A stretch of DNA of 35,582 nt, from the NCBI GenBank assembly GCA_023954255.1, contig JAMLIH010000027.1, positions 1-35,582 on the forward strand, given 5' to 3'. Positions 5,250 to 21,558 of this stretch are shown here, piece after piece. Origin of the DNA: Phyllobacteriaceae bacterium (GTDB lineage: Bacteria > Pseudomonadota > Alphaproteobacteria > Rhizobiales > Rhizobiaceae). Each line of letters opens with the position of its first letter. The stretch's first letter is position 1. The notes below the pieces were generated by a model. It was not told the origin of the DNA. It ran no database searches and was given only the letters and a program-made list of their open reading frames with translations. Position numbers and translations under genes: made by a program.

Positions 5250-6044
5250 ATGGACATGGCGCGCATGATACCGTTCCTGCACATCGTCTGTTACAAATGG
5301 GGCACCGGTTATTCCGCCGGGGAGGTCAACATTCTGCGTGCAATGGTGCAGCGTCATCTGACCGTTCCCCATGTCTTCCACTGCATAACGGACGATGCTT
5401 CCGGCCTTGCCGAGGACATCAAGGTACATGACCTGCCGCGCAACCTGCCCGGCAACGGACCCAAGATATTCTCCTTTTCCGACGGCTTTCTCGGGCTTGG
5501 CCCGGAGGACTACATCGTCAGTCTCGATGTCGATCTGGTCATCGTTGGCAGTCTCGATTTTCTTGCCGAGCAGCCACAAGAGGATTTCATCATCACCCGC
5601 CACCCCAACCGAAGGGGCGACTACGTTCTGCACGGCGCGGTCTACCGGCTCCGTGCCGGCAGTCATCATCATATTTGGGACCGTTTCATCGCGAACCCCT
5701 ATGGCAATGCCAGCCGCTTTCCCGGCGTCAACGGCAACAGCTTCTCGGAACAGTTGTGGCTGGAAGACCAGATCGATCCGGAGGACTGGCGCTTCTTCCC
5801 GGACGGCAAGATCATTCTGTTCCGAACCGATTGCCGTGCCAAGGAACCGGCACGCCACATCAATCGCATTATCGGGCATGTAGGGCTCAGCATTCCCTCC
5901 GCCGGATGGGGCAAGGCCCGTCTGCCTGGCGCCGGCGAGGCAATCGTTTCCTTTGCCGGTCAGACCAAGCCACACAACGTGCTTTCCAGACCGCACAACC
6001 GCCTGCGCCACGCGCCCTTCGTTGCCGAGCACTGGCATCTTTGA
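5250..6044 (+). CDS. Putative GT-A-type glycosyltransferase
   Basis: A protein of about 264 aa. The N-terminus reads like a nucleotide-sugar fold (IPFLHIVCYKWG), and a D-V-D motif near residues 93-95 (SLDVDLVIVGSLD) resembles the metal-binding DxD of GT-A glycosyltransferases. A later block with an acidic/tryptophan-rich segment (EQLWLEDQIDPEDW) is typical of acceptor-side regions. The start is uncertain: in-frame ATGs lie at 5223, 5250, 5256 and 5265, and none has a strong ribosome site. The gene is followed after about 80 nt by a sulfotransferase on the same strand, which suggests sulfation of a glycan or glycolipid. Function is inferred from motif and neighbour only. Confidence 0.6.
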   Translation: MDMARMIPFLHIVCYKWGTGYSAGEVNILRAMVQRHLTVPHVFHCITDDASGLAEDIKVHDLPRNLPGNGPKIFSFSDGFLGLGPEDYIVSLDVDLVIVGSLDFLAEQPQEDFIITRHPNRRGDYVLHGAVYRLRAGSHHHIWDRFIANPYGNASRFPGVNGNSFSEQLWLEDQIDPEDWRFFPDGKIILFRTDCRAKEPARHINRIIGHVGLSIPSAGWGKARLPGAGEAIVSFAGQTKPHNVLSRPHNRLRHAPFVAEHWHL

Positions 6045-6122
6045 GACCGCTGCTGCGGCTAGGCGAAATTTCCGGTTGGGCAAACTCCGGGCTTCCATTA
6101 TTTCTCGGAAGCAGAATGGAGT

Positions 6123-7553: not shown

Positions 7554-8765
7554 TCAATAATCGCCCGGCGGTGTGGCGCTGCGCCGTTGGTGGACGAAGA
7601 AGGGCTTTTCAGCGATCCGGCATCGCTCCATGCGCCGCTGCCAGCGGATCTCCTTCTGCAGGTAGATTTCAACCCATAAATCCCCGCTTTCGGTTTCCCC
7701 GTAAGGTGCGTCGAGCCAGGCATAGGCGATGTTCTGCTTGCAGGTGGGCGACCACAGCGCCGAGGTCACCATCCCGACTTCCTTCTTCTTGCGGTGGTAG
7801 ACAAGGGCATTTGCCGCAGGCTTGTCCTTGCCCACTTCCATTTGCACCAGCCTGCGGCGCGGTGTTGAACCCGCTAGGCGAAGCAGGGCGCGGCGACCGT
7901 TGAAATGGGGCTTGTCAAAGGCAATCATGCGTTCCAATCCGAGTTCGAAAGGCGTGCTCGGGCGATCTGTCCTGAGTGCTGTTCGCGATGAAAGAAAGTC
8001 GGTTTTCGGCAGCAGGAAACCCGCCTCGATGCGAGCCATCTCGACGGCCTGATAGCCGATGACGCGCAGGCCCTGCTGCCCGCCTGCCCCGACCAGGTCA
8101 TCCCAGACCGCAACCGCATCCTGCGGCTTCATCCACAATTCGTAGCCGAGATCGCCGGTGAAGCCGGTGCGTGAAAGCTCCACCACCTTCCTGCCGATCC
8201 TCACCGCGGCAAAATCGAACGGCTTGAGCTGCTCCATCTCCTTCACAGCCAGTGCCCGCAACAGCGCTGCCGATGTCGGTCCCTGCAGGGCCAGTGCCGC
8301 CATCTCGCGGCTGACGTCCCGGATGGTTGCATCGAAGCCCCATGCCACATCTTCCAGCCATGCCAGTTGCGGTTCCTGGCAGCACAGGCGGAACCGGTCT
8401 TCAGCCAGCCGGAACACGGTACCGTCGTCAATGACGTTGCCGTCCTCGTCACACCAGATGACATAGGCAACGCGGCCGGGCTTGAGCTTCCGGATATCGC
8501 GGGTGACCAGCCGGTTGACGACAGCTTCGGCGTCGGCTCCCTCGATCGCGTATTTGCACATCGGCGAAATGTCGAACAAGGTCGACTGGTTGCGGATGGC
8601 AAAATACTCGAACTCAACGTTGTCGAGAACCGAAGGCGAGGCAAATCCCATCCAGTCCATCCAGCCATACTGGCTGTTGAGCGCCGCGATCCGTTCATGG
8701 AACGGGCCGGCCTCGAGCCCCACGGCGACCTGCGGATGCGGTGCTTTGGCGTTCTTGCGGGCCAT
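7554..8765 (-). CDS. GcvT-family aminomethyltransferase (predicted THF-dependent demethylase)
   Basis: A 403-aa member of the glycine-cleavage T-protein/DmdA/sarcosine-dehydrogenase C-domain family. These proteins pass a methyl or methylene group from a substrate to tetrahydrofolate. Family motifs are visible: DISPMCKYAIEG near the N-terminus (about residues 65-76), SRTGFTGDLGYEL in the middle, and the ARIEAGF block after it. There is no H-protein or P-protein gene nearby, so a stand-alone demethylase for an N-methyl (or S-methyl) compound is more likely than glycine cleavage. The ATG directly abuts the TGA of the upstream FAD oxidoreductase (TGAATG), indicating translational coupling. It belongs to the transcript driven from the palindrome at 11892. 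Confidence 0.88.
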   Translation of the reverse strand: MARKNAKAPHPQVAVGLEAGPFHERIAALNSQYGWMDWMGFASPSVLDNVEFEYFAIRNQSTLFDISPMCKYAIEGADAEAVVNRLVTRDIRKLKPGRVAYVIWCDEDGNVIDDGTVFRLAEDRFRLCCQEPQLAWLEDVAWGFDATIRDVSREMAALALQGPTSAALLRALAVKEMEQLKPFDFAAVRIGRKVVELSRTGFTGDLGYELWMKPQDAVAVWDDLVGAGGQQGLRVIGYQAVEMARIEAGFLLPKTDFLSSRTALRTDRPSTPFELGLERMIAFDKPHFNGRRALLRLAGSTPRRRLVQMEVGKDKPAANALVYHRKKKEVGMVTSALWSPTCKQNIAYAWLDAPYGETESGDLWVEIYLQKEIRWQRRMERCRIAEKPFFVHQRRSATPPGDY

Positions 8766-10250
8766 TCAGCGCCTCCTCCCGGCAAGCAAGGCCTGCGCGC
8801 CGTTGAACCCCGGCGCGCCGGATATGTCACCGCCCGGATGCGCGCCTGCCCCGCACAGATAAAGACCTTCAACCGGCATGGCATAGTGTGCAGCCCCGTC
8901 GAACGGACGCAGCATGAGCAGTTGATCGATCCGCAATTCGCCATGATGCCAGTGACCGCCGGGAACCCGGTATGCCGCCGCCATGTCCTGCGCGGTCATC
9001 AGCCGCGCAGCCGCGGCCAGGCTCCCGAACCCCGGGAAGACCCGGGCCAGTTCCCGTTCAACCAATCTCTGCAAAGCCCGGCGGCTCTCCTCTTTCCACC
9101 CGCCTTTCAGCGAACAGGGTATGAACTGGGCACTGACGGAGAGGCGGCGATTGCGATCATCGTAATGGGCTTCCATCACTGGCTGTTTGGGCAATTCGCC
9201 ATATTTTGCGGCATTGAACGCGGCTTCCACCGCCGCTGCGCTTTCCGCGATCACGATCCGGTCCTTGCCCGAAGGCGCCGTCCCGCCGGAAAAACGGGGA
9301 GCGTCCTTGAGGTCGAAATCAATTCTGGCGACCATGCCCGTAGAGGCCGTTTTCCGGCAACGGCGAACAAACTCGGCATCGAGATGCTGTGGGCCAAGCA
9401 GATCGAGCAGCGTCGTGGCGGGCGCAGCCGAGGAGAGGACTGCGGCCGAGGGAACAATCTCCCCACCGGCAAGCTGCACACCGGTTACCCGGTCGCCCTC
9501 AACCAGGATGCGCTCAACCGGGGCGTTGGTTCTGATTTCACCGCCGCACGCCATCACCGCATTCTCGAGCTTGCCGGTCAGGATATCGATGCCACCCTTC
9601 GGCATGACCCTCATGCCGCGATTCCTCGCCATCCGCAGCAACAGCGTCAGAACGGTGCCGGGCGACCGCGGTCCCATGGCGCTGCCGAGTGTCGCGTCCA
9701 CGGCAAGGGCGGCGGCAAGCGGACCATCGCCAATCTCATCCTCGATGAGATCGTGAATGTTGGACAGGACGATCCGCAGCAGATCGCGCAGTTCCGTCTT
9801 GCCGAGGCCACGCAGCTTCAAACCCGTACCTGCCAGCCCCAGCAGATCTCCGAAGCCGGAACTTGCCAGATTCGGCGGCGGCTTCAGAAGCAATCCCGAC
9901 AAAGCCGAAGCCTGCCGCTCCAGCCTGCTCATCAGCGCCCGGTATGCGGCTGCTTGCCCGTCTTCGGCGCCCACCACCTGTTCTGTGGAGATGCCTACGA
10001 CGCCCTGGGGTGTCGGAACGAGGGTGGTCATCGGTTCGAACGCCACATCGATGCCGAGCGCCCGAAGGACCTGTGGCCACACCGCAAATGGCATTGTGGA
10101 GAGACGAAAATCGGGATCGCCCATCATTCCGCCGACATGACCGCGCGCTTCAAGGACAAGCGGTTTCAACCCCCGCTTTGCCAGCAGTCCGGCGGCGATC
10201 AGGCCGTTATGGCCCGCACCTATGACGATGACACGCTCCCCCCTTTTCAC
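8766..10250 (-). CDS. Phytoene-desaturase-like FAD-dependent oxidoreductase (COG1233 type)
   Basis: A 494-aa amine-oxidase/phytoene-desaturase-fold flavoprotein. The N-terminal dinucleotide-binding motif reads VIVIGAGHNGLIAAGLLAKRG, followed by an acidic residue that binds the FAD ribose (LVLEARGHVGG). The C-terminal flavin segment is GLYLCGAGAHPGGDISGAPG, typical of the family. No carotenoid genes are nearby, so the substrate is more likely an amine or ring compound from this catabolic locus. Its ATG overlaps the stop of the upstream paralogous oxidoreductase by 4 nt (ATGA), and its stop abuts the GcvT-like gene. The two oxidoreductases are distant paralogues and could act as a pair. Confidence 0.87.
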   Translation of the reverse strand: MKRGERVIVIGAGHNGLIAAGLLAKRGLKPLVLEARGHVGGMMGDPDFRLSTMPFAVWPQVLRALGIDVAFEPMTTLVPTPQGVVGISTEQVVGAEDGQAAAYRALMSRLERQASALSGLLLKPPPNLASSGFGDLLGLAGTGLKLRGLGKTELRDLLRIVLSNIHDLIEDEIGDGPLAAALAVDATLGSAMGPRSPGTVLTLLLRMARNRGMRVMPKGGIDILTGKLENAVMACGGEIRTNAPVERILVEGDRVTGVQLAGGEIVPSAAVLSSAAPATTLLDLLGPQHLDAEFVRRCRKTASTGMVARIDFDLKDAPRFSGGTAPSGKDRIVIAESAAAVEAAFNAAKYGELPKQPVMEAHYDDRNRRLSVSAQFIPCSLKGGWKEESRRALQRLVERELARVFPGFGSLAAAARLMTAQDMAAAYRVPGGHWHHGELRIDQLLMLRPFDGAAHYAMPVEGLYLCGAGAHPGGDISGAPGFNGAQALLAGRRR

Positions 10251-11877
10251 GCTGCCGCCCCCAGATCAAACTTGTGGCCGAGATCAGCCAGTATTTCGCG
10301 CGCGGCATTGGCGCCCGGCGCGCCCATGACCCCACCGCCCGGATGGGTTGAGGAGCCGCACATGTAAAGGCCCCTGACCGGCGAGCGGTACTGGGCATAG
10401 CCGGGCACGGGCCGGTTGAAGAGCAACTGGTCAAAAGTCAGCTCTCCCTGAAAGATGTTGCCCTCCGTCAGCCCCGTCTCGCGCTCGATATCGAGCGGTG
10501 ACCTGACCTCCTTGTGGACGATAAGCTTGCGGAAGTCGGGGCTGTGGCGGGCAATCTTCGAGATCACCGTCTCGGCAAATGCTTCGCGGTTGGCGTCGTC
10601 CCACTGCCCTTCGGCGAGCTCATAGGGAGCGTACTGAACGAAAACCGTCGCATAGTGCTTGCCGGGAGGCGCCATGGTCGGGTCGATCTGGGTCGGTATG
10701 AGAAAATCGACATAGGGGCTCACCGACCAGCGGCCTGCCTTCCAGTCGTCATAAGCGCGTTCGATCTCCTCCATGTCGTCCAGGAAATGAAGATCTCCCT
10801 TCAGGAAACGCGCATCCTTGGGAGCGCCGGAGAAGGTCGGCATGCCGTCGAGCGCAATGTTGAGCTTGCCGGATGAACCGCGAAAACGATATCGGCGAAC
10901 CGCTTTCAGGAAGTCCGATGGCAACTCCCGTTCGTCTGTGTGGTCGATGAAGGTGCGGCGAACATCCATGCCGGAAACGACGGTGCGGGCCTCGTATTCA
11001 TCGCCATTTTCCAGAACGATGCCGCGAACCTTGCCGTTGCGGATCGCGAACCGGTCGACACCCGAGTCGGTGCGGATTTCCCCGCCGCTCGCCTCGAAGG
11101 ATCGGGCCAGCGCCTTGCTGATCGACCCCATGCCGCCGCGCGCAAACCCCCAGGCCCCGATCGCACCATCGACCTCGCCCATGTAGTGATGCAGCAGCAC
11201 ATAGGCGGTGCCCGGCGAGTAAGGACCGAGGCCCGTTCCGATGATGCCCGAGCCCGCCAGATGCGCCTTGATGATCGAGGTTTCGAAATACTGGTCGAGA
11301 TATTCAGCGATGGACATGGTCCAGAATCGAATGGTTTCAGCCATCTCACGCGGCCCGAGACCATGAAAGCGCTTAAGGATGTAGGCGAGTTCGGAAACAT
11401 CGCGCGGCCGCAGGCGCACCGGATCGGGCGCAGTACGCATGAGCAGCGGCTTGATGAACTTGCACTGCCGCATGACCGAGCGGGCATATTGCTCGTAGTT
11501 GTCCGCATCCTTCGGCGAATGGCGCATCAGCTCCCGGCGCAGCGCATCATGATCCGAGAAATAGGCAAAATACCCGTCTTTGGAATCAAAGGTCGCGCCG
11601 CTTTCATAGGGTATGACCTGCAATCCGAATTTCGGCAGTTCCAATGCGCGTATGATTTCCCGGCCGCAGCAGCGAAGCAGACATAGGAACAGTTCGAATA
11701 TGTCCATCCGGGCGTCAGCGACAGGCTGACGGCCGCACCACCGATATGCGGGTTCTTTTCGACGACGAGCACCCGCAAGCCGGCCCTTTGCAGGAAACAG
11801 GCAGTCACCAGCCCGTTATGCCCGGCTCCCACGATGATGGCGTCATATTTTCCGGCACTGGTTGACGAGAAGGGCAT
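10247..11877 (-). pseudogene. Phytoene-desaturase-like FAD oxidoreductase, frameshifted near residue 67
   Basis: Second COG1233-type flavoprotein, about 540 aa if repaired. Translation from ATG 11877 (GGAAG just upstream) gives MPFSSTSAGKYDAIIVGAGH and continues through the FAD motif to ...YSNCSYVC at 11677. The rest of the protein, starting EIIRALELPKFGLQVIPYE, is in another frame and runs to 10247. Between them the third frame reads SLLRP, the residues this family normally has there. The sequence is therefore explained by one extra T (AA run at plus 11675-11676) and one extra G (CCC run at plus 11659-11661). Everything else is intact, including the C-terminal flavin motif GLYMCGSSTHPGGGVMGAPG. 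Either a recent pseudogene or homopolymer sequencing errors. It heads the operon with the second oxidoreductase and GcvT. Confidence 0.85.
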
Positions 11878-11891
11878 TGGGCTTCCAAAAA

Positions 11892-11907
11892 TTGAGCGTT
11901 TACTCAA
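11892..11907. promoter_or_regulatory. Operator copy A of the 16-bp catabolic-locus palindrome
   Basis: TTGAGCGTTTACTCAA, with perfect 5-bp arms TTGAG/CTCAA. It lies in the short divergent gap between the oxidoreductase-GcvT operon (minus) and the first tetR gene (plus). It matches copies at 12609, 18447 and 21189; its right flank (AAATTATTCC) resembles that of copy D. Likely operator of one or both TetR regulators. Confidence 0.75.
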
Positions 11908-11942
11908 ATTATTCCGCTTTGTCGCAAATGTCCAGTTGGCTT

Positions 11943-12578
11943 ATGGATACGGCCATGAAAACAGGTGAAAAACAGACCGGCACCTCACCGACGAGCAGGC
12001 GCATGCAGGCGCGCATTCTCGATGCCGTTGTCGATACCGTTGCCGAAAAGGGCATCAGCGGGACGACGCTGGCCAATGTCGCAGCAGCAGCCGGTGTATC
12101 GCAGGGTGTGCTGGTGTTTCACTTCAAGACCAAGGCCGGCCTTCTCAATGAGGCACTTCTGCGCCTGCTCGACGAATACCGGGAAGCATGGCGCCCGGCC
12201 CTGGCGGAACCGACGCCGCTTGGCCAGATTCTTGCGCTCGTGCGCGCCGACTTCGATCCATCTATCTGTACCCGCAAGAAACTCTCACTCTGGTTTGCCT
12301 TCTGGGGGGAAACATCGGCAAAACCGTTCTACAATCAGCTTGCCAGCGAGAGCGAGGAAGAGCGGTTCCAGGCCATGAAACAGGCTTGCGAGGCGCTGGC
12401 GAAGACGGTTCATGTTCCCCAGCCCGTCCTGCTTGCCCAGTCGATCGACGCTCACACGGACGGCCTCTGGCTGCAGATGCACCTGCAGGGGCCGGAGTTC
12501 GGCGTCCGGGAAGGCCTCGAGGCGGCACTGGTGCACCTGCGCCTGCTGCTGCCCGATCTTGCCAACTCGATCTCCTGA
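11943..12578 (+). CDS. TetR-family transcriptional regulator, BetI-like
   Basis: A 211-aa DNA-binding repressor. The N-terminal helix-turn-helix (about residues 20-65) contains TTLANVAAAAGVSQGVLVFHF, followed by KxGLLNEAL, the usual TetR layout. The ligand domain resembles choline-sensing BetI in the block CTRKKLSLWFAFWGE. It faces the oxidoreductase-GcvT operon with operator copy A between them, the normal arrangement for an autoregulated local repressor. In-frame ATGs at 11928, 11943 and 11955 are all possible starts, none with a strong ribosome site; 11943 is used here. A quaternary-ammonium or related N-methyl inducer is inferred from the BetI resemblance. Confidence 0.85.
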   Translation: MDTAMKTGEKQTGTSPTSRRMQARILDAVVDTVAEKGISGTTLANVAAAAGVSQGVLVFHFKTKAGLLNEALLRLLDEYREAWRPALAEPTPLGQILALVRADFDPSICTRKKLSLWFAFWGETSAKPFYNQLASESEEERFQAMKQACEALAKTVHVPQPVLLAQSIDAHTDGLWLQMHLQGPEFGVREGLEAALVHLRLLLPDLANSIS

Positions 12579-12608
12579 CCATTCCGGCAGTCAGCGCTTG
12601 GCCGCTTA

Positions 12609-12624
12609 CTGAATGGTTATTCAA
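12609..12624. promoter_or_regulatory. Operator copy B of the 16-bp catabolic-locus palindrome
   Basis: CTGAATGGTTATTCAA, with arms TGAAT/ATTCA around GGTT. It lies 57 nt upstream of the methyltransferase gene, where it would control the methyltransferase-tetR-binding-protein transcript. The flanking context (ACTGAAT...ATTCAATAA) is nearly identical to copy C. Confidence 0.72.
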
Positions 12625-12680
12625 TAAAAGTGTTGCTTTTTGCCGGAACCAGCCAGATACTTTTTGCAGGAGGGCTGCGC

Positions 12681-13490
12681 ATGGCTGGCGAAGGCATTGC
12701 AGCTTCCGGCTTTCATGAGCCGGAATATGACGAGACCGCAATCCGCTTCCTGGAGGCGCTTTGGGGCGAAGGTTATCTTTCGCCGGGCGGTCCGGACGAG
12801 GTGCGGCGGATCGTCGAAGGTATCGATTTTGCCGGCAAGCATGTTCTGGACATCGGCTGCGGCTCCGGCGGCATCACATTGTTCCTTGCTGGTGAGTATC
12901 CACTCTCACGCATTACCGGCTTCGATGTCGAGCAGCCGGTGATCGATGCCGCCCGGCGGCGGGCGGTCGAGGAAGGCCTCGAGCAACGCTGCGATTTCGT
13001 GCGCGGCGATCCCGGTCCACTGCCGTTCGATGATGGCTCCTTCGATGTGGTTTTCTCGAAGGATGCACTCATTCACGTGGCAGACAAGGAGGCGCTGTTT
13101 GCAGAAGTCTTCCGCATACTGCGCCCCGGAGGCGTTTTTGCCGCAAGCGACTGGCTGACCTCCCACGACGGCGAGCCATCGACCGACATGAAAGCCTATC
13201 TGGCAGCAGAAGGGCTCAGTTTCGGCATGGCCTCGCCACAACGCTACGAGGCAGCAATGCAGGCGGCAGGGTTTACCGGCGTCAGTACTGTCAATCGCAA
13301 TCCATGGTACCGTGAAGTGGCGCGCGGGGAACTGGGGCGGCTGGCAGGTTCGGAGCGCGAGCGAATTTCGGCAATCGTCGGCGCAGACTATGTAGACAAG
13401 AACATTCGCACATGGACGGCCATGCAGAAGGTTCTCGATTCCGGCGAGCATTGCCCGACACATCTGCGCGGTTTCAGGCCGGAAAACTGA
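12681..13490 (+). CDS. SAM-dependent methyltransferase, phosphoethanolamine N-methyltransferase-like
   Basis: A class I methyltransferase of 269 aa. The start ATG at 12681 follows GGAGGG with 6-nt spacing; an upstream frame to 12630 is not needed. Motif I is [10 protein letters not shown], followed by FDVEQPVI, a RGDPGPLPF acidic segment, and the post-motif block [19 protein letters not shown]. The last block and the early [10 protein letters not shown] sequence resemble plant and protozoan phosphoethanolamine N-methyltransferases, so an amine N-methyl transfer is plausible. It starts a plus-strand operon with a TetR gene 12 nt downstream and then a binding-protein gene. A methyltransferase inside an apparent demethylation locus is unexpected; it may regenerate or detoxify an intermediate. 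That role is a guess. Confidence 0.83.
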
Positions 13491-13502
13491 CGGAGCACCG
13501 AA

Positions 13503-14216
13503 TTGGAGAGAGGCGCTATTCTGCAGCATGACGAAGAAGGCAAGACGGATGCTCCGCCCGCCCGCCGCAGGGAATCCAGGGAGAAACGCCGCGAACAGTT
13601 GATCAATGCCACCATCGACTCCCTGGCAAAGCGCGGATACGCCGCAACAACACTCGCCAACGTCTCCGACGGGGCGAAGCTGTCGCGCGGGATTGTCAAT
13701 TTTCACTTCGACAGCAAGGAAAACCTGCTGCTCGAAACCCTGCAATACATGTCCGACGAGTATCAGGAAAACTGGAAGGCCCGATATGCGGAATCGGCGC
13801 CGGACACCGCCTCCCGGCTGGCAGCACTGGTAACTGCCGATCTCGACCGGCGCATTTGCACGCCGCGCACCATCTCCGCCTGGTTCGCGCTGATGGCGGA
13901 AGCCAAATCGCGCCCGGCCTACCAGAAACTGGTCTGGGAGCGCGACGCCAAGTATCGCGGCCGCCTTACGGAATACTGCCGGAAGGCAAAGGAAGAGGCC
14001 GGTTACGCATTCGACCCCGAGATTGTGACCGCTGCAATCTACGCCATGCAGGAAGGGCTTTGGTTAAGGCTCATGCTTTCGGGCGGCGATTACAAGCGAA
14101 CCACGGCGCTCAAGGTCGTCAAGGAGATGCTCGGAACGGTCCTTCCGAAGCATTTTACGCCGGAAGGCACCCCGCTTAGCCACGCAAGCAAGCGCAACAC
14201 AGGGAGAAAACAATGA
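13503..14216 (+). CDS. TetR-family transcriptional regulator, BetI-like (second copy)
   Basis: A 237-aa repressor-type protein. The start is TTG at 13503, supported by GGAG 7 nt upstream and by the absence of an earlier in-frame ATG. The helix-turn-helix lies at about residues 35-75 with TTLANVSDGAKLSRGIVNFHF, very similar to the first TetR protein of the locus. The ligand domain again has a BetI-like CTPRTISAWFALMAEAKSRP block. It is sandwiched in an operon between the methyltransferase and the transporter binding protein, overlapping the latter by ATGA, so it is co-expressed with uptake. Both regulators may share the four operator copies or divide them. Confidence 0.85.
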   Translation: MERGAILQHDEEGKTDAPPARRRESREKRREQLINATIDSLAKRGYAATTLANVSDGAKLSRGIVNFHFDSKENLLLETLQYMSDEYQENWKARYAESAPDTASRLAALVTADLDRRICTPRTISAWFALMAEAKSRPAYQKLVWERDAKYRGRLTEYCRKAKEEAGYAFDPEIVTAAIYAMQEGLWLRLMLSGGDYKRTTALKVVKEMLGTVLPKHFTPEGTPLSHASKRNTGRKQ

Positions 14217-15292
14217 GAAAACTCATCAAGGGAAAGATCGCTGCCGGGCTTTGCCTGGCGCTGATGTTCGGGGGCTCCACCCTGGCATATGCGGAAGACA
14301 GCGAACTGATTGTCTTCGACTGGTCAGGATACGAGGATCCGTCCTTCCATCCGGCCTATGTGGAAAAGTACAATGACTCGCCCACCTTCACCTTCTTCGG
14401 CGACGAAGAGGAAGCGTTCCAGAAACTGCGTTCCGGTTTCAAGGCGGATCTGGGGCATCCCTGCTCCCAGAGCGTGGTCAAATGGCGTGAAGCAGGCCTG
14501 CTGAAGCCGCTCGACACGTCGCGGATTGCTGCATGGGACGACATCATGCCGGGCTTCAAGGCCATGAAGGACCTGATGACCACCGAAGACGGGCAAGCCT
14601 GGCTCGTTCCCTTCGACTGGGGCAACACCGCCGTCACCTACATGACGGAAAAGGTCACATCAGAGCAAGTGCAGTCGCTCAAGGCCTTTGCCGATCCGGC
14701 CTTTGAGGGTCGTGTTTCCATCGGCGACAATGTGGATGACGCCTATGCGCTGGCGAGCCTGGCGATCGGGCTCAAGGACTGGTCCGCCATGACCGACGAG
14801 CAGTTCGCCGAAGCCTCGGAATTCCTGCGCCAGGTGCACAAAAACGTCCGGCTGTACTGGACCGACAACACCGAGCTCAGCCAGGCGATGGCGGGTGGCG
14901 AGGTGGACCTCGCCTGGGCGTGGAACGAGACGGCGACAACCCTGCAGGCCGACGGCGTTCCGGTTGCCATCAAGAAAGACACCGACGAGGGATTGTCGAC
15001 CTGGGTTTGCGGTTACACGGTTATGACGGATGCGCCCGGGAGCGAGGAAAAAGCCTATGATTTCCTGAACGCCATCCTCGATGAACGCGTGTCGTCCTAC
15101 ATCGTCTCGGAATGGGGCTACGGTCACAGCAATGCCAAGGGCATGGACGCCATCGACAAGGAAACGCTGGATGCAAGCGGCTATGGCGATCTTGCCGCAT
15201 TCGTTGACAAGACGCTGTTCCAGTCTCCGGTGCCGGCGGAACTGAAGCAAAAGATGATCGCCGAGTTCGAGAAGATCAAGGCGGGTTACTGA
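14213..15292 (+). CDS. ABC transporter solute-binding protein, polyamine type (PotD-like)
   Basis: A 359-aa periplasmic binding protein of the spermidine/putrescine class. The Sec signal peptide covers about residues 1-27 (GKIAAGLCLALMFGGSTLAYA). The mature part has the PotD-like opening LIVFDWSGYEDPSF and a later LAWAWNETATTLQADGVPV block. ATG 14213 overlaps the TetR stop and has AGGGAG upstream. The cognate permeases and ATPase are on the opposite strand at 15.4-18.3 kb. PotD relatives in alphaproteobacteria often bind quaternary amines or amino acids rather than polyamines, so the ligand cannot be assigned. A strong terminator follows at 15336. Confidence 0.88.
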   Translation: MRKLIKGKIAAGLCLALMFGGSTLAYAEDSELIVFDWSGYEDPSFHPAYVEKYNDSPTFTFFGDEEEAFQKLRSGFKADLGHPCSQSVVKWREAGLLKPLDTSRIAAWDDIMPGFKAMKDLMTTEDGQAWLVPFDWGNTAVTYMTEKVTSEQVQSLKAFADPAFEGRVSIGDNVDDAYALASLAIGLKDWSAMTDEQFAEASEFLRQVHKNVRLYWTDNTELSQAMAGGEVDLAWAWNETATTLQADGVPVAIKKDTDEGLSTWVCGYTVMTDAPGSEEKAYDFLNAILDERVSSYIVSEWGYGHSNAKGMDAIDKETLDASGYGDLAAFVDKTLFQSPVPAELKQKMIAEFEKIKAGY

Positions 15293-15335
15293 TCCGTCAG
15301 CGCTCTGACCGGAGCGCTCCACGGGCAACAGATCG

Positions 15336-15368
15336 GGGCCGGGCTGTAGCAGTCCGGCCCTTTGTTTT
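15336..15368 (+). terminator. Rho-independent terminator after the binding-protein gene
   Basis: An 11-bp GC-rich stem (15336-15346 with 15350-15360, one G-T pair, loop TAG) followed by TTTGTTTT. It ends the plus-strand methyltransferase-tetR-binding-protein operon just before the convergent ATPase gene. Confidence 0.8.
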
Positions 15369-15405
15369 GCCCCAGGAGGACAGAGCGCCGGAAGTTGGGC
15401 ACTGC

Positions 15406-16485
15406 TTACGACGGCATGTAGACGAAGGCGTCGCGGTCATAGGTCAGGCGCACCGGCGAGCCGATGGGGATGTCGTCGGCGCCGAAATCGTTCGTCTCGA
15501 CCACCGAGAGCGCTTTCTCCTGGCCCTCGATCTCGACGGCCAGATTGGTGACCTCGCCGAAGTAATGCCGGTCCGCAACCTTGCCGTTGATGACCGGATC
15601 GGCGCTTTCGCCTTCCCAGACGATACGCAGCCGTTCCGGCCGGATTCCGATAACCGGCGAGGCGCCGGTGGTGCCTGCGGAGGTTAGTTTGCCTGCGACC
15701 TTGCCAATCCCGGGAAGATCTGCGGAGAACTGGCCACCCGCCGTCCTGACCTCCTGCGCGGTCAGAAAGTTCATCCCGCCAAGGAAATCCGCGACCTGCC
15801 GGCTGGACGGGCTCTGATAGATGTCTTTCGGGGTGGCGGTCTGCGAAATCTCGCCGCCAAACATGACGGCGATGCGGTCGGACATGGCCAGCGCCTCATA
15901 CTGGTCGTGCGTGACGAGGACGAAGGTAATGCCGATCTGGCGCTGCAGATGGCGCAGTTCCACCTGCATCTGTTCCCTGAGCTTCTTGTCGAGCGCGGAC
16001 AAGGGTTCGTCGAGCAACAGCACCTTCGGCCGCATCACCAGTGCCCTGGCAAGCGCCACGCGCTGCCGCTGGCCACCGGACAGCTGGTTACCCATGCGCG
16101 GACCAAGGCCAGTGAGTTCCACTTGTGCCAATGCCTCGTCCACGCGGCGCCTTTCCTCTTCCCGCCCGAGGCGCTGGCGCTTGAGCCCGTAGGCGACATT
16201 CTCCGACACGTTGAGATGGGGGAAGATCGCATAGCTCTGAAACACCATATTGGTAGGTCTCAGATTGGCGGGCATCCCCGACATGTCGGCGCCGCCGATC
16301 GAAATCGAGCCGAGTGTCGGTTCGTCGAAGCCGCCGATCAGCCGTAACAGCGTGGTCTTTCCGCAGCCGGAGGGCCCCAGCAGGGAAAAGAATTCCCCTT
16401 CCGCTATTCCGGTACTGACGGGTCCGAGCGCGCGGAAGCTTCCATAATGCTTCTCGACGCCGTTGATTTCGATCATGTTTGCCAT
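15406..16485 (-). CDS. ABC transporter ATP-binding protein, PotA type
   Basis: A 359-aa ATPase energising the polyamine-type importer. Walker A reads GPSGCGKTTLLR, the Q-loop is NMVFQSYAIFP, the signature LSGGQRQRVALARAL, Walker B VLLLDEPLSALD, and the H-loop VLVTHDQ. The C-terminal third is a TOBE-type regulatory domain. The start MANMIEING at 16485 is preferred because the family usually begins just before the IEI strand; a frame to 16536 exists but adds unrelated residues. It is the last gene of the permease-permease-ATPase operon, 72 nt after the second permease. Confidence 0.92.
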   Translation of the reverse strand: MANMIEINGVEKHYGSFRALGPVSTGIAEGEFFSLLGPSGCGKTTLLRLIGGFDEPTLGSISIGGADMSGMPANLRPTNMVFQSYAIFPHLNVSENVAYGLKRQRLGREEERRRVDEALAQVELTGLGPRMGNQLSGGQRQRVALARALVMRPKVLLLDEPLSALDKKLREQMQVELRHLQRQIGITFVLVTHDQYEALAMSDRIAVMFGGEISQTATPKDIYQSPSSRQVADFLGGMNFLTAQEVRTAGGQFSADLPGIGKVAGKLTSAGTTGASPVIGIRPERLRIVWEGESADPVINGKVADRHYFGEVTNLAVEIEGQEKALSVVETNDFGADDIPIGSPVRLTYDRDAFVYMPS

Positions 16486-16557
16486 CCGCTCACATCCCTG
16501 TCTCCCCGGCCTTTGTCCGGCCTGTCTCCGGCACACATCATGTTGTCGTTTCCCTCA

Positions 16558-17364
16558 TCAGGTCTTCGCCGCCGTCCGTGCCTCAGCCCGCCGCCGCACG
16601 ATTTCCGCAACGGTCAGCATGATCAGCGATGCCGCGATCATCACGGATCCCAGCGCCAGAACGTTCGGAAGCTTCGCCGCAAAGCGCAGCTGGCCCCAGA
16701 TGTAGACCGGCAGGGTCGGTTCGGTGCCGCTGAGGAAAAAGGCGAGAATGAACTCGTCGAGTGATATCGTGAACGTGACCAGCAGGCTCGAAATGATCGA
16801 GGGTGCGAGCATGGGAAGCGTGACGCGCCTGAGGGTCCCCCAGGTCGTTTCGCCAAGATCGCGTGAAGCTTCCTCCATGCTTGGATCGAAACCCTCGAAA
16901 CCCGAAACCAGAACCGTCACGGAATAGGGAACGCAAATCAGCAGGTGGCCGAGAATGACGGTCAGCAGCGACAACTCGATTCCGGCACCCAGGAGCACCA
17001 CGAGCAACGAGATTGCGATGATGATTTCCGGCAGGATCAGCGGCGCCATGATCAGGCCGCTGGCGATGCCTTTGCCGGCAAACCTGTGCCGGGTGATGGC
17101 GCGGGCGGCGCATATGCCGAGGATCGTGCTCAACAAGGCTGCGCTGATGCCGACCAGCAGCGAGTTCCATGCCGCGTTGTGCATTGTCGCGTTGCTGGAC
17201 AGGCTGGAAAACCATTTGAGCGTGAAGCCGGCCAGAGGCAGTTTGGGTGTCGCCGAATCGTTGAACGAGAATACCGGCAGCAGCAGGACGGGAAAGTACA
17301 GGATCGCCACATAGAGTGCGACATAGGCGGTGATAATGCCCTTGCGAATCGACTTTCCGGTCAT
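16558..17364 (-). CDS. ABC transporter permease, PotC type
   Basis: A 268-aa inner-membrane protein with about six hydrophobic segments, the first at residues 10-33. The cytoplasmic EAA loop that docks to the ATPase reads EEASRDLGETTWGTLRRVTLP. Length and layout match PotC. Its ATG overlaps the stop of the upstream PotB-type permease by 4 nt (ATGA), so the two subunits are translationally coupled and form the heterodimeric channel. Confidence 0.92.
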   Translation of the reverse strand: MTGKSIRKGIITAYVALYVAILYFPVLLLPVFSFNDSATPKLPLAGFTLKWFSSLSSNATMHNAAWNSLLVGISAALLSTILGICAARAITRHRFAGKGIASGLIMAPLILPEIIIAISLLVVLLGAGIELSLLTVILGHLLICVPYSVTVLVSGFEGFDPSMEEASRDLGETTWGTLRRVTLPMLAPSIISSLLVTFTISLDEFILAFFLSGTEPTLPVYIWGQLRFAAKLPNVLALGSVMIAASLIMLTVAEIVRRRAEARTAAKT

Positions 17365-18281
17365 CTGAGAAGCCTCTTCAAGCCGAGCAGAAGCAGTACC
17401 ATGGCGCCGGACAGCATGCCGACGATGATCATGGTGGAAACTGCAAGCGCCGCACCGAGAGGCCAGTTTGCCGCCTTGCCGAACTGGGCCTGGATTGCAT
17501 TGGCAATCATGACCCCGTCCTTGCCGCCGACGAGTTTCGGCGTGACGTAGTCGCCGACGGTCGGGATCATCACGATCATCAGCGCTGCGATGATACCCGG
17601 CATCGTCAGGGGAAGCGTGATTCGCATGAAGCGCCGCACCGGACCGTCGCCGAGGTCGGCTGCCGCCTCGAGCAGGGTCCGGTCGACCTTTTCCAGCGAA
17701 ACGAAAAGCGGGAGGATGGCGAAGGCCGCCCAGCTATGTGCCAGGGTGATGATGACGGCATTGACGTTGTAGAGCAGCGAGGACAGCGGTTCGGAGATGA
17801 TGTGGAGATATTGCAACCCGGTATTTAGGACGCCGTTGAAGCCGAGGATCACCTTCCAGGAGAGGATGCGCAGCAGATATCCCGACCAGAAGGGGACCGT
17901 GATGATGAACAGCCAGATGCCCTTGTACTTGCCACCGTGGAACGACACGAACCAGGCAACGGGATAGGCCAGCACAACGGTGACGATGCTGACCGCCACT
18001 GAAACAAAAAGCGACCTGAACAGCAGGTCGCGATAGATGGGTTCGGTCAGCGCCTCGCGGTAATTTTTCAGCGTGAAAGTGCGGTCGATGGTCAGGTAGT
18101 CCTGGGTCCAGAAGCTGTTGGCGATAATGACCAGTATCGGCCCTGCCAGGAGGAGCAGCGCATACACGAAGGGCGGGGATATGGTGAGCCATCCCTGCCC
18201 TGCATCGGAGCGGAGCCATTTTCCGGTAGTCCGTTCCATGACGGCACCGGCGGACAATCGTCTGCTAACTTCCCCGCTCAT
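17361..18281 (-). CDS. ABC transporter permease, PotB type
   Basis: A 306-aa inner-membrane permease. The EAA loop reads LEAAADLGDGPVRRFMRITLP, and six hydrophobic segments follow a short cytoplasmic N-terminus. The start at 18281 is chosen for a perfect GGAGG (18288-18292) with 6-nt spacing and because it gives the normal PotB length. The frame stays open upstream to ATGs at 18440 and 18458, which would add 53-59 residues with no family resemblance and no ribosome site; 18458 even lies inside operator copy C. The 160-nt stretch between operator and start is thus probably a transcribed leader. First gene of the potB-potC-potA-like operon. Confidence 0.88.
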   Translation of the reverse strand: MSGEVSRRLSAGAVMERTTGKWLRSDAGQGWLTISPPFVYALLLLAGPILVIIANSFWTQDYLTIDRTFTLKNYREALTEPIYRDLLFRSLFVSVAVSIVTVVLAYPVAWFVSFHGGKYKGIWLFIITVPFWSGYLLRILSWKVILGFNGVLNTGLQYLHIISEPLSSLLYNVNAVIITLAHSWAAFAILPLFVSLEKVDRTLLEAAADLGDGPVRRFMRITLPLTMPGIIAALMIVMIPTVGDYVTPKLVGGKDGVMIANAIQAQFGKAANWPLGAALAVSTMIIVGMLSGAMVLLLLGLKRLLR

Positions 18282-18446
18282 TCCCGGCCTCCAGGACGCA
18301 GCCGCCTCGACCGCGGCTACCACATGGTTCCTGCGGTCCGCGCCTTGCGGAAGCGCGGCTGTGAATGGCGTTTCCGCGAACTGCCAACCGTGTGGATTTG
18401 ATGCCAATTCCCGATTGAGCGCAAGCGGTTTTTCTGACATTATTGA

Positions 18447-18462
18447 CTGAATGATCATTCAA
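18447..18462. promoter_or_regulatory. Operator copy C of the 16-bp catabolic-locus palindrome
   Basis: CTGAATGATCATTCAA, whose inner 14 bp (TGAATGATCATTCA) are a perfect palindrome. It lies in the divergent gap between the transporter permease operon (minus) and the aminotransferase (plus), so one site can control both. Confidence 0.78.
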
Positions 18463-18523
18463 TAACGCGCTGCCAACCAGCACCGAACCTGTGCCGGCGC
18501 AGCATTTCAGTCCGGAAAGAACC

Positions 18524-19918
18524 ATGAAAGCCCTGCCCCCGATCAGCCTTGAAAAGGCGGCAAACCTGGCCATCGACCACCTCATTCAACCCTGGCCCTA
18601 TGCGGGAAGCATCGGCAACGAAACGAGGGGCATGGTGAGTGAAGCGGAGGGCGTTTACGTCTACGACGACAAGGGGCGGCGGCTGATCGACGGTCCTGCG
18701 GGAATGTGGTGCACCAATGCCGGACACCGCAACAAGGAACTGGCGGACACGTTGCATGCGCAGGCCATGGCGCTTTCCTACAATACGCCCTGGTACACCA
18801 GCAGCCCGCCTGCCGCCGTCCTTGCCGAACGGCTGGCGCAGTACACACCCGGCGATCTCAACCACTTCTTCTTCACCACCGGCGGGTCGACCGCTGTCGA
18901 GACCGCTCTGAGATTTGCCTGGTTCTACAACAATGTCCGCGGGCGGCCGGAGAAGAAGAAGCTGCTTTGCCGCGAGGGCGGCTATCACGGCAGTACCTAT
19001 CTGGCGGCCTCTCTCAACGGCAATCCGCGCAGCCGCAACTGGATGGACAATGCCGAGGACGCGGTCATCCGGCTTTCCTCGCCGGACCCGTTCCGGCGGC
19101 CTGAAGGCATGACGCCGGAGGCTTTCACGAATCAACTCGTCGATGAGTTCGAAACAGCCATCGAAAGCCATGGCGCGGAGAACATTGCCGCCTTTGTCGG
19201 CGAGCCCATCATGGCTTCGGGCGGCGTCATCGTGCCGTCGGGAGACTACTTTGCGCGCATCCGGCAGATTTGCGCGCGTAACGACATCCTTTTCATTGCC
19301 GACGAGGTCGTCACCGCATTCGGCAGGCTCGGGCACATCTTTGCCTCGGAAGCGCGATTCGGCGTCGTGCCGGACATCATTACGTTTGCGAAGGGGGTTA
19401 CCAGCGGCTACTTCCCGCTCGGCGGCATGGCGGTTTCCGACCGGCTGCTGGAGGAACTGCGCGCCTCAAACCACCCCGAGGCAATGTTTGGCCACGGCTA
19501 TACCTATACCAGCCATCCGATCGGCAGCGCGGTTGCCCTGCGCAACCTGGATCTGCTGGAGGGTGGCATTCTGGACCATGCCCGGGAGATGGAGCCCCAT
19601 TTCCAGGCCGGGCTGAAAAGCCTGGAGGAACTGGAACTGGTTGGCGAGGTCAGGGGAATGGGCCTGATGGCCTGCGTCGAATGCGTTGCCGACCGCGAGA
19701 CGCGAAACCCGATCCGCCTCGACACGGAGGTGGGCAACCGGATCGACCGCCACTGCCAGGAGCTTGGCCTGCTGGTGCGGCCGCTCTATCACATGTGCGT
19801 CATGTCTCCGCCGCTGATCATCGACCGGGGGCAGATCGAGGAGATGGTATCGATCCTCCGCGAGGGCATCAGCAGGACCATGGAAGATCTGCGGCGCGAA
19901 GGCATCTGGAACAACTGA
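18524..19918 (+). CDS. Class III PLP-dependent aminotransferase
   Basis: A 464-aa fold-type I transaminase of the omega-amino-acid/amine:pyruvate group. The PLP-binding lysine is Lys290 in TFAKGVTSGYFPLGG; Asp260 in FIADEVVTAFGR contacts the pyridine nitrogen; the phosphate-contact motif is FTTGGSTAVETAL. The start at 18524 has GGAAAG just upstream. It is divergent from the transporter operon across operator copy C. Together with the importer, oxygenase and flavoproteins it is expected to remove a primary amino group from a downstream catabolic intermediate, with pyruvate or a similar keto acid as acceptor. The actual donor is unknown. Confidence 0.9.
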   Translation: MKALPPISLEKAANLAIDHLIQPWPYAGSIGNETRGMVSEAEGVYVYDDKGRRLIDGPAGMWCTNAGHRNKELADTLHAQAMALSYNTPWYTSSPPAAVLAERLAQYTPGDLNHFFFTTGGSTAVETALRFAWFYNNVRGRPEKKKLLCREGGYHGSTYLAASLNGNPRSRNWMDNAEDAVIRLSSPDPFRRPEGMTPEAFTNQLVDEFETAIESHGAENIAAFVGEPIMASGGVIVPSGDYFARIRQICARNDILFIADEVVTAFGRLGHIFASEARFGVVPDIITFAKGVTSGYFPLGGMAVSDRLLEELRASNHPEAMFGHGYTYTSHPIGSAVALRNLDLLEGGILDHAREMEPHFQAGLKSLEELELVGEVRGMGLMACVECVADRETRNPIRLDTEVGNRIDRHCQELGLLVRPLYHMCVMSPPLIIDRGQIEEMVSILREGISRTMEDLRREGIWNN

Positions 19919-19922
19919 CCGC

Positions 19923-19938
19923 GCCCGCAGGAGCGGGC
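19923..19938. terminator. Short hairpin between convergent genes
   Basis: GCCCGC-AGGA-GCGGGC, a perfect 6-bp stem with a 4-nt loop, lies between the convergent aminotransferase and Rieske oxygenase genes. No long T-run follows, so it is at best a weak bidirectional terminator. Confidence 0.4.
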
Positions 19939-19967
19939 AACGGGTTTCCAGTCGGCACATTCCGGGT

Positions 19968-21173
19968 TCAGCCGGCAGCCATCCGCATCGCGGTGTTGAG
20001 CCGCTCGATATCCTCTTCCGCCGGACGCTCCTCCAGGGTTGCCACGGGAAGAATGGCTCTCAAATGGTCATGATGCGTGCGTACGCCATATTCGAGATCC
20101 GATAAAAAGAAACCCTCGAAGGCGGATGAGGTCATCGCCTCGTTGGACCATTCGGTCAGCTGCACATCTTCCGCCATGGTCTGCTGATCGATGCGCAGCG
20201 CGAGCTTGCGGGCGAGCTTCTGTTCCCGAGTTTCATCGCGGTAGCGGTAGATTGCGCCGCGAAGCAGGCTTTCGCCGGTCGAGAGCGGAAACTCCTGGTA
20301 GAATTGCACCATCTCCGGCGTCACCGCGATCACCGCATTGGGGAAGAGGCCGTAATAGATCCATGCCCGCTTGATCTCTTCAGGCAAATGCTCGCGCGGT
20401 GAAAGCGCCTTGAGATAGTGGCGCACGCTCCACAGCCGGCCATTCTCGTTGCAGGTGGCGAACGAGCGGCAGACGCCGCCGACGAAAGGCTCGTCGTAAT
20501 AGGAGCGGCCGTAGAGGTCCTGCAGGGCGGGATGGGCCAATGCGACGTGATAGCCTTCATTGTCCACGTCGCGCACCGACTTCCAGTTCACGATCGAGGT
20601 TTGCGTCCAGAATCCCCTGGTCGGGATCATCTCGGCCATCCGGTAGTGGGACATCTCCTCGGCAAAGGGCTGCATCAGTTCCGCCACGCTGGGCTGCGGG
20701 CCGGGTTGCAGCCGGATGAACACGAAACCCTGCCAGACCTCGGTTTCGATCGGCGGCAGGCCGAACTCGTTCTTGTCGAGCTTGGGAAATGAATCCGGCC
20801 TGGCCGCGCCCCGCAAGGTGCCGTCGAGATTGTAGACCCAGCCGTGAAACGGACACACCAGCGCGCCCTTGCACTTGCCCGATTCATCGGCCACGACCCG
20901 GGCACCGCGATGGCGGCACAGATTGTGGAATGCGCGCACCTCGCCGTCATTGCCGCGAATGACCAGCGCGCGTTCGCCGCAAATGTCGAGCGTGATGAAA
21001 TTGCCGGGCTCCGCCACGTCGGAGATATGACAGGCGATCTGCCAGTGGGTGCGGAAAACCTCCTTTATCTCGAGATCGAGAAAGGCCTTCGAATGATAGG
21101 TCCAGCCGGGCAGTCCGCTGCGGTCCCACTCCTCGGGTACTGAAATATCCCTGCTGTTTACAATCTTGTTCAT
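19968..21173 (-). CDS. Rieske non-heme iron oxygenase, alpha subunit (quaternary-ammonium monooxygenase-like)
   Basis: A 401-aa oxygenase component. The Rieske [2Fe-2S] ligands are Cys86 and His88 (NLCRHRG) and Cys107 and His110 (CPFHGW). The mononuclear iron site is seen in DNEGYHVALAHP, with His209 and His214. It resembles the glycine-betaine/carnitine/stachydrine demethylating oxygenases, which oxidise an N-methyl group and release formaldehyde. No reductase gene is adjacent, so electrons must come from elsewhere. The start is ATG 21173 (MNKIVN) or ATG 21185; neither has a ribosome site, and operator copy D ends only 4 nt upstream of the longer start. Single-gene transcript running toward the aminotransferase. 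Confidence 0.88.
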   Translation of the reverse strand: MNKIVNSRDISVPEEWDRSGLPGWTYHSKAFLDLEIKEVFRTHWQIACHISDVAEPGNFITLDICGERALVIRGNDGEVRAFHNLCRHRGARVVADESGKCKGALVCPFHGWVYNLDGTLRGAARPDSFPKLDKNEFGLPPIETEVWQGFVFIRLQPGPQPSVAELMQPFAEEMSHYRMAEMIPTRGFWTQTSIVNWKSVRDVDNEGYHVALAHPALQDLYGRSYYDEPFVGGVCRSFATCNENGRLWSVRHYLKALSPREHLPEEIKRAWIYYGLFPNAVIAVTPEMVQFYQEFPLSTGESLLRGAIYRYRDETREQKLARKLALRIDQQTMAEDVQLTEWSNEAMTSSAFEGFFLSDLEYGVRTHHDHLRAILPVATLEERPAEEDIERLNTAMRMAAG

Positions 21174-21188
21174 GCACGGCACCATTTT

Positions 21189-21204
21189 TTGAGTGATTGC
21201 TCAA
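21189..21204. promoter_or_regulatory. Operator copy D of the 16-bp catabolic-locus palindrome
   Basis: TTGAGTGATTGCTCAA, arms TTGAG/CTCAA as in copy A, and a similar flank (TTTATTCC). It lies immediately upstream of the Rieske oxygenase gene, where bound repressor would block transcription. Confidence 0.74.
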
Positions 21205-21349: not shown

Positions 21350-21394
21350 TGGCGCACCCGACAGGATTCGAACCTGTGACCTCTGCCTTCGGAG
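21350..21394 (-). other. 3' fragment of tRNA-Arg(CCG): island attachment-site remnant
   Basis: Read on the minus strand, 45 nt run from the anticodon loop CTCCGAA through GGCAG, the variable region, a perfect T-arm (ACAGG-TTCGAAT-CCTGT), the 3' acceptor strand CGGGTGC, discriminator G and encoded CCA. The 5' half of the tRNA is absent; the bases beyond 21394 do not form a D-arm or acceptor. This is the expected duplicate left when an element integrates into the tRNA 3' half, and a tyrosine integrase begins 165 nt further on. It is not a functional tRNA. Confidence 0.82.
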
Positions 21395-21558
21395 CGGGCA
21401 TTTAGGTGTTTTTCGCACTGTTCCCAAACATGGCCATATTTGGAAAATACCATTATAATCATGATGTTAGAGCAATATCACGATTGACGGCTTTGGACTG
21501 AGATTTCCGACTTTTCGCTGATTTTGCTTCCGTATTGCTTCCGTGCGGGACCGCTGCC

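What the first reader, a model, noticed from the sequence alone, without database searches (positions are those of the whole stretch)
11892..21204. Four copies of one 16-bp palindrome sit at every promoter of the 14-kb catabolic locus
Seen: TTGAGCGTTTACTCAA (11892), CTGAATGGTTATTCAA (12609), CTGAATGATCATTCAA (18447), TTGAGTGATTGCTCAA (21189); consensus YTGARYGDTYRYTCAA. The flanks also pair up (A with D, B with C). The four sites lie in the four intergenic gaps from which all transcripts between 7.3 and 21.2 kb must start; I found no further copy by eye in the other promoters I examined. Inference: they are operators of the two BetI-like TetR proteins and define a single regulon joining transporter, Rieske oxygenase, flavoproteins, GcvT-like demethylase, methyltransferase and aminotransferase.
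Basis: partly seen in the sequence, partly recalled or inferred. Interest (0 to 1): 0.82.

Follow-up and report, generated by a model that had tools for sequence, protein, structure and literature searches.

The report
Two repressors split one catabolic locus
Four look-alike DNA switches control a cluster of bacterial degradation genes, and comparison with relatives suggests that they are two pairs, told apart chiefly by one base and each read by its own repressor protein.

Summary
The four 16-bp sites are real and specific: in the 3.34-Mb genome only they match within one mismatch, and 100 shuffled windows gave no exact match. They recur at the same promoters of orthologous clusters in Hoeflea, Mesorhizobium and other relatives.

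In the 12 loci with TetR1, position 5 is G at sites A (12 of 12; flavoproteins/GcvT | TetR1) and D (10 of 10; Rieske oxygenase), while positions 5/12 are A/T at B (12 of 12; methyltransferase-TetR2-binding protein) and C (11 of 11; permeases | aminotransferase). In 66 loci without TetR1 all 138 scored sites are A/T. The recognition helices differ: VSQG(V/A)LVFHF in TetR1, mostly LSRGIVNFHF in TetR2. Four distant clusters with a Q-type TetR beside the flavoprotein gene also have TTGAG there, three of them in altered frames.

Best model, inferred and not shown by biochemistry: two autoregulated BetI-like repressors divide the locus, TetR2 holding uptake and transamination, TetR1 the oxygenase, flavoproteins and demethylase. 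Precedent: two BetIs in Ruegeria pomeroyi. New variant of a known kind; substrate unknown.

The parts
11892..11907 (.). Site A, TTGAGCGTTTACTCAA, G class; inferred TetR1 operator in the gap FADox2 | TetR1
   Evidence: Exact position; G at position 5 in 12 of 12 TetR1+ loci, C at position 12 in 3 of those 12
12609..12624 (.). Site B, CTGAATGGTTATTCAA, A/T class; inferred TetR2 operator before MTase-TetR2-SBP
   Evidence: A/T in 12 of 12 TetR1+ loci
18447..18462 (.). Site C, CTGAATGATCATTCAA, A/T class; inferred TetR2 operator in the gap permease | aminotransferase
   Evidence: A/T in 11 of 11 TetR1+ loci that reach this gap
21189..21204 (.). Site D, TTGAGTGATTGCTCAA, G class; inferred TetR1 operator before the Rieske gene
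   Evidence: G/C in 10 of 10 TetR1+ loci that reach this gap, one of them (L087) a weak site of score 13
7554..8765 (-). GcvT-like folate-dependent demethylase
   Evidence: Pfam GCV_T, GCV_T_C; best NCBIfam model far below its cut-off
8766..10250 (-). FADox1, CrtO/amine-oxidase-like flavoprotein
10247..11850 (-). FADox2, CrtO/amine-oxidase-like flavoprotein; reading frame interrupted near 11677-11689, open part 10247-11707
   Evidence: break seen by tblastn with the Hoeflea protein
11955..12578 (+). TetR1, BetI-like repressor, recognition helix VSQGVLVFHF (start may be 11943)
   Evidence: Pfam TetR_N and TetR_C_6; BetI model 93.2 bits, cut-off 201.3
12681..13490 (+). SAM-dependent methyltransferase (MTase)
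   Evidence: used as search profile
13503..14216 (+). TetR2, BetI-like repressor, recognition helix LSRGIVNFHF
   Evidence: Pfam TetR_N and TetR_C_6; BetI model 113.2 bits, cut-off 201.3
14213..15292 (+). PotD-like periplasmic binding protein (SBP)
15406..16536 (-). ABC transporter ATPase with TOBE domain
16558..17364 (-). ABC transporter permease 2
17361..18257 (-). ABC transporter permease 1 (start codon uncertain; the open frame runs to 18458)
18524..19918 (+). Class-III aminotransferase (NCBIfam PRK07036 model over its cut-off)
19968..21185 (-). Rieske oxygenase large subunit, nearest solved relative carnitine monooxygenase

Best explanation
The four sites are operators of two BetI-like, autoregulated TetR repressors that divide one catabolic locus. 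TetR2 (13503-14216) binds the A/T-class sites B and C and represses MTase-TetR2-SBP, the ABC permeases/ATPase and the aminotransferase. TetR1 (11955-12578) binds the G-class sites A and D and represses FADox2-FADox1-GcvT, its own gene and the Rieske oxygenase. Position 5 of a shared 16-bp frame (G or A), with position 12 mirroring it in most but not all G-class sites, matches changed residues in the recognition helix (Gln and Val in TetR1 where TetR2 has Arg and Asn) and keeps the two apart. Shown by sequence: the sites, their conservation, the class split and its link to the presence of TetR1. Inferred: protein-DNA binding, which protein reads which class, repression by covering the promoter, and release of the two halves by separate effectors (imported substrate for TetR2, a downstream intermediate for TetR1).
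For: Uniqueness of the four sites in the own genome. Class split in 12 TetR1+ loci: G at position 5 at A 12 of 12 and D 10 of 10; A/T at B 12 of 12 and C 11 of 11; in 66 TetR1- loci 138 of 138 scored sites A/T. TetR1 is confined to 7 of 394 family genomes at E 1e-55, the same ones that carry the G class. Recognition helix SQG..V in all 14 TetR1 rows (two are duplicates), LSRGIVNFHF in 84 of 92 rows labelled TetR2. In class-level clusters, 4 of 4 Q-type TetRs beside FADox2 have TTGAG in that gap. Across 7 whole TetR1+ genomes 18 of 21 places of the A/T pattern are B, C or one shared extra site; backwards control 0.
Against: No binding data. TetR1+ loci come from few lineages (Nitratireductor-type and Hoeflea-type; 2 changes of state on the MTase tree), so the class switch may be one or two events. 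Site A has G, not C, at position 12 in 9 of 12 loci, so only one half-site is of G class there. The distant Q-type cases are imperfect: L203 and L228 have a shorter palindrome TTGAGCGCTCAA, L205 only a left half. Two R-type TetR clusters (L230, L233) have no recognisable site. The symmetric G/C pattern also hits 3 unexplained places and the tandem pair of another system, and its backwards control hits 2 of 6 genomes.
Confidence: 0.72

Rival explanations
1. One joint regulon: both TetR proteins bind all four sites, competing or as heterodimers, and the base at position 5 only tunes affinity.
For: All four sites share one 16-bp frame and fit one consensus; the two TetR proteins share the BetI-type C domain; site A of 9 Hoeflea-type loci has unlike half-sites, as a mixed dimer might read.
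Against: The strict split of classes between A/D and B/C in 12 loci and its absence in 66 TetR1- loci; different recognition helices.
Confidence: 0.17
2. The choline repressor BetI, or another TetR of the genome, reads some of the sites, so the locus is tied to choline or betaine status.
For: A BetI-like protein is encoded at G000:C87 (192.4 bits, cut-off 201.3), and like-framed sites stand upstream of BetI-like genes.
Against: In 15 of 19 BetI-like loci the like-framed site has T or C at position 5, including TTGATTGACGAGTCAA in the own genome; none of the sites A-D has T or C there. Two of 19 have A, two none.
Confidence: 0.06
3. The resemblance of the four sites is chance or reflects promoter composition, with no regulator involved.
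For: At 3 mismatches the window is not above chance; 15 of 21 isolated hits examined in relatives lie within called open frames, as chance hits would.
Against: No exact match in 100 shuffles, uniqueness in the genome, and recurrence in orthologous promoter gaps: 186 of 199 assigned sites score 15 or more.
Confidence: 0.02

Closest known systems
Two-BetI control of choline-O-sulfate and choline catabolism in Ruegeria pomeroyi DSS-3 (PMC12442346; outline with abstract, passages and section 20 read)
   Same: Two BetI-type TetR repressors in one alphaproteobacterium share out one catabolic gene set and read different palindromes; BetI2 boxes share AAACTTGAAC and do not match the betI box.
   Different: There both sense choline and the genes are bet genes. 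Here the genes are an uncharacterised Rieske/flavoprotein/GcvT cluster, both TetRs score far below the BetI cut-off, and the classes differ chiefly at position 5. I had no sequence of R. pomeroyi BetI2 to compare.
BetI, choline-responsive repressor of bet genes
   Same: Same family of HTH and C domain and a like-framed operator in the same genomes.
   Different: Operator position 5 is T/C in 15 of 19 BetI-like loci; other gene content; other recognition helices.
TetR-tetO (PMC7102968; passages read)
   Same: Those passages name Gln38, Pro39 and Thr40 as specificity residues and Gln38 and Arg28 as the only side chains with hydrogen bonds to bases. TetR1 Gln50 would sit at Gln38 in an alignment that I recall and did not compute.
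   Different: Only the HTH is comparable; no structure of TetR1 or TetR2 was made here.

Membership tests
TetR family regulators | TetR_N helix-turn-helix domain over the Pfam gathering score | tested here: met
   TetR1 44.9 and TetR2 41.4 bits against 24
BetI (TIGR03384 equivalog) | Whole-protein score over the curated cut-off of 201.3 bits | tested here: not met
   TetR1 93.2, TetR2 113.2 bits
BetI (TIGR03384 equivalog) | Choline as effector | not testable with these tools
   No binding assay; no bet genes were identified among the cluster genes scanned
Conserved regulon with its own operators | Sites recur upstream of orthologous genes in relatives and are rare elsewhere | tested here: met
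Conserved regulon with its own operators | The regulator binds the sites | not testable with these tools
   Needs EMSA or footprinting
Two-repressor split with operator classes | Operator class follows presence of the second repressor | tested here: met
   12 TetR1+ and 66 TetR1- loci of 83, 5 undecided; few independent events
Recent duplication of TetR2 as the origin of TetR1 | TetR1 nested in or sister to TetR2 of the same genomes | tested here: not met
   TetR1 is its own clade (100/100) outside the TetR2 clade of the same genomes (100/98); its exact place is unsure because of a long branch (65 of 116 rows)

The most novel reading that the evidence does not exclude
Three BetI-type repressors in one genome use the same 16-bp operator frame and are kept apart mainly by one base per half-site: T/C at position 5 for BetI, G for TetR1, A for TetR2, each tied to characteristic recognition-helix residues. 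Clusters that hold both TetR1 and TetR2 combine two regulators of which, in other lineages, only one serves the same oxidoreductase genes, and so cut the pathway into separately inducible uptake and oxidation halves.
Probability: 0.4. Interest if true: 0.62.

Novelty: new variant of a known kind. Interest (0 to 1): 0.52.

Why it matters
It is a compact natural case in which the presence of a second repressor goes with a base switch at exactly two of four operators of one locus, with many relatives as the unswitched comparison. That makes a recognition code for BetI-like TetR proteins testable with a handful of short DNA probes, and it predicts that a conserved, uncharacterised pathway is induced in two separate steps. 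The predicted regulons also say which genes of the cluster act together.

Tried and rejected
Single regulon for all four sites: rejected as the best reading because of the class split. Motif owned by BetI proper: thought unlikely, since 15 of 19 sites at BetI-like genes have T/C at position 5. Isolated exact matches in relatives as a wider regulon: of 21 such loci examined, 15 fall within called open frames, three of them at the very start; the tandem TTGAG pairs in G051, G111 and G016 stand before a gene with a weak match, below cut-off, to a peroxidase-related family. Recent duplication of TetR2 into TetR1: not supported by the tree. A sigma-70 scan of 11800-12720 found no promoter; the other gaps were not scanned. 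Substrate: the solved relatives (carnitine monooxygenase, polyamine-binding proteins, class-III aminotransferases), extra genes in relatives and paper searches did not settle it. Paper searches were made; in their listings I saw no report of this split, but lists were cut (for example 20 of 92) and most subscription papers are not held.

Rows dropped before counts: L166, L167 and L045 as duplicates of L090, L097 and L169. Five of 83 loci whose contig or gene content does not show the TetR1 position were kept apart as undecided. Promoter regions running off the contig and scoring under 14 were not counted. Four TetR1- rows scored weak because the FADox2 start was misplaced; the same gap has the site from the MTase side. 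One of the 138 TetR1- sites (L130, 9707, score 14) is probably a chance hit next to the real site of that gap. Of 21 FADox2 matches, the own genome and G1076 were not mapped; L203 (G519) was added.
Full report
Observation. The stated consensus has 4 exact matches in the window and none in 100 dinucleotide shuffles; with 3 mismatches the signal is lost (16 against a mean of 13.71). In the whole own genome, 3.34 Mb in 139 contigs, only these four places match within one mismatch, and the backwards control matches nowhere. The much looser frame TGANYGNNYRNTCA is not specific (28 match rows, control 14). As palindromes they are imperfect, 5 to 7 of 8 pairs.

Genes. Family scans give a GcvT-like demethylase, two CrtO/amine-oxidase-like flavoproteins, TetR1, a SAM methyltransferase, TetR2, a PotD-like binding protein, an ABC ATPase and two permeases, a class-III aminotransferase and a Rieske oxygenase, whose nearest solved relative is carnitine monooxygenase and whose best NCBIfam model is GbcA, far below its cut-off. 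Both TetR proteins have a BetI-type C domain but score 93 and 113 bits against the BetI cut-off of 201.3. Site A lies between FADox2 and TetR1, B before MTase-TetR2-SBP, C between permease and aminotransferase, D just before the Rieske gene.

Recurrence. An exact pattern search of 121 genomes (own plus 120 relatives) hit 41, with 70 match rows (both strands) against 19 for the backwards control. About half of the 40 regions fetched from these genomes held at least part of an orthologous cluster, with sites in the same gaps; the others held isolated hits. A scan of named genomes with a methyltransferase profile kept the best 80 of 444 loci: Nitratireductor MAGs, Hoeflea, Mesorhizobium, Rhizobium and others. 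In the window plus these 80 plus two more loci, 199 sites were assigned, 186 with a score of 15 or 16 of 16; 12 further sites with such a score lie elsewhere in these loci, 1.58 Mb in all.

Two classes. The scoring pattern treats G and A at position 5 alike. The 83 loci fall into 12 with TetR1, 66 without and 5 undecided. With TetR1: site A has G at position 5 in 12 of 12 (with C at position 12 in 3, G in 9); site D is G/C in the 10 of 12 loci that reach it (L087 with a score of only 13); site B is A/T in 12 of 12 and site C in the 11 loci that reach it. Without TetR1: 67 A/B-gap, 55 C and 16 D sites with a score of 14 or more, all A/T; one of the 67 (L130, 9707) is probably a chance hit beside the real site. 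Of the undecided loci, L088, a Hoeflea contig that starts after the TetR1 position, has a G/C D site; the other 7 sites of score 14 or more there are A/T and 4 rows are weak. Hoeflea marina (L107) lacks TetR1 and has A/T at all three gaps. Fisher tests within TetR1+ loci give 2.4e-13 by site and 5.1e-7 by distinct sequence, but related genomes are not independent: the MTase tree needs only 2 changes of TetR1 state.

Proteins. All 14 TetR1 rows (12 loci and 2 duplicates) carry VSQGVLVFHF (6) or VSQGALVFHF (8); 84 of 92 rows labelled TetR2 carry LSRGIVNFHF. TetR2 keeps this helix whether or not TetR1 is present, which fits its keeping the A/T class. The differing residues lie in the recognition helix; passages of PMC7102968 name Gln38 of TetR among the specificity residues, and placing TetR1 Gln50 at Gln38 is from recall. 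TetR1 is a clade of its own, outside the TetR2 of the same genomes, with an unsure place. It is rare: 7 of 394 family genomes, own included, at E 1e-55.

Other lineages. Order and class searches found TetR1-like proteins in G519, G979 and G1145, beside FADox2. A class-wide FADox2 search gave 21 matches in 19 of 385 genomes. Of 20 loci mapped, 4 have a Q-type TetR beside FADox2 (L203, L204, L205, L228), and all 4 have TTGAG in that gap: the shorter palindrome TTGAGCGCTCAA in L203 and L228, TTGAGCGTTTATTCAA in L204, and TTGAGCAGTTATTTAA, with a degenerate right half, in L205. Five clusters with helices ending in VNFYF or MNFHF have A-class sites (L232 TTGATTGAACGTTCAATCAA; L234, L235, L238, L239 with CTGAATG or TTGAATG sites before FADox2); in these the TetR lies in the cluster, not always next to FADox2. 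L230 and L233 (R-type) have no recognisable site. The other 9 of 20 had no TetR found on the stretch; one of them, L227, has TTGAGCGCTTATTTAA before FADox2. Small numbers, but the link of helix type to position 5 is also seen outside the family.

Whole TetR1+ genomes. The A/T pattern has 21 places in 7 genomes: 14 are B and C, 4 are one identical extra site (G051, G191, G352, G005), 3 are unexplained; backwards control 0. In the two regions read around the extra site (G051, G005) it stands before a second polyamine-type ABC transporter. The symmetric G/C pattern has 13 places in 6 genomes (own genome not given to that call): 6 are D, 2 are A, 2 the tandem pair of another system in G051, 3 unexplained; the control hits 2 of 6 genomes.

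BetI proper. The own genome encodes a BetI-like protein at G000:C87 (192.4 bits, just under the cut-off). Of 19 BetI-like loci, 15 have a like-framed site with T or C at position 5 (in L173 only as the second-best hit), including TTGATTGACGAGTCAA in the own genome; two have A, two none. This suggests, without proving it, that one frame serves three repressors.

Mechanism. Each repressor would control its own gene and one half of the pathway. The sites lie about 4 to 62 bp from the nearest predicted start codons, as expected for covering a promoter, but no promoter was mapped and a consensus scan of 11800-12720 found none. I propose that the imported substrate releases TetR2 and a later intermediate releases TetR1; this is inference. 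The substrate is probably an N-methylated amine or betaine, judged from the families present, not shown.

Known work. The nearest precedent is the two-BetI system of Ruegeria pomeroyi (PMC12442346; outline with abstract, passages and section 20). I could not compare its BetI2 with TetR1 or TetR2. The listings of my paper searches showed no description of this locus or split.

Noticed in passing
window 11677-11689: The reading frame of FADox2 is interrupted: residues 2-59 and 57-534 of the Hoeflea protein align in two frames. The window is a contig of an incomplete assembly, so this may be an assembly error or a real lesion.
   Followed up: partly
window 21355-22803: A tyrosine recombinase gene (21535-22803) follows a stretch that by eye resembles the 3' part of a tRNA gene (about 21357-21403), close to site D. 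ARAGORN finds no complete tRNA in the window. The locus may border an integrated element.
   Followed up: partly
L058 7401-7440, L059 7233-7272, L060 7517-7556: Tandem TTGAG-type palindromes with starts 24 bp apart stand near a gene with a weak match to a peroxidase-related family in three genomes, probably operators of another regulator.
   Followed up: partly
L045 3596-3611; L065 10013-10028; G191:C41:31363; G352:C12:134304: One identical A/T-class site (CTGAACGATCATTCAA on one strand) occurs in four TetR1+ genomes; in the two regions read it stands before a second polyamine-type ABC transporter, a likely extra TetR2 target that is not seen in the own genome.
   Followed up: partly
L232 3145-3164; L117 and L157 near 14127: A perfect 20-bp palindrome (TTGATTGAACGTTCAATCAA) holds a BetI-like and an A-class half-site in overlap; the Rieske promoter sites of L117 and L157 lie in a longer palindrome.
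   Followed up: no
window 3565-7247: A sulfatase and a sulfotransferase gene lie next to the locus; no match to them was found in the 40 regions of relatives compared.
   Followed up: no
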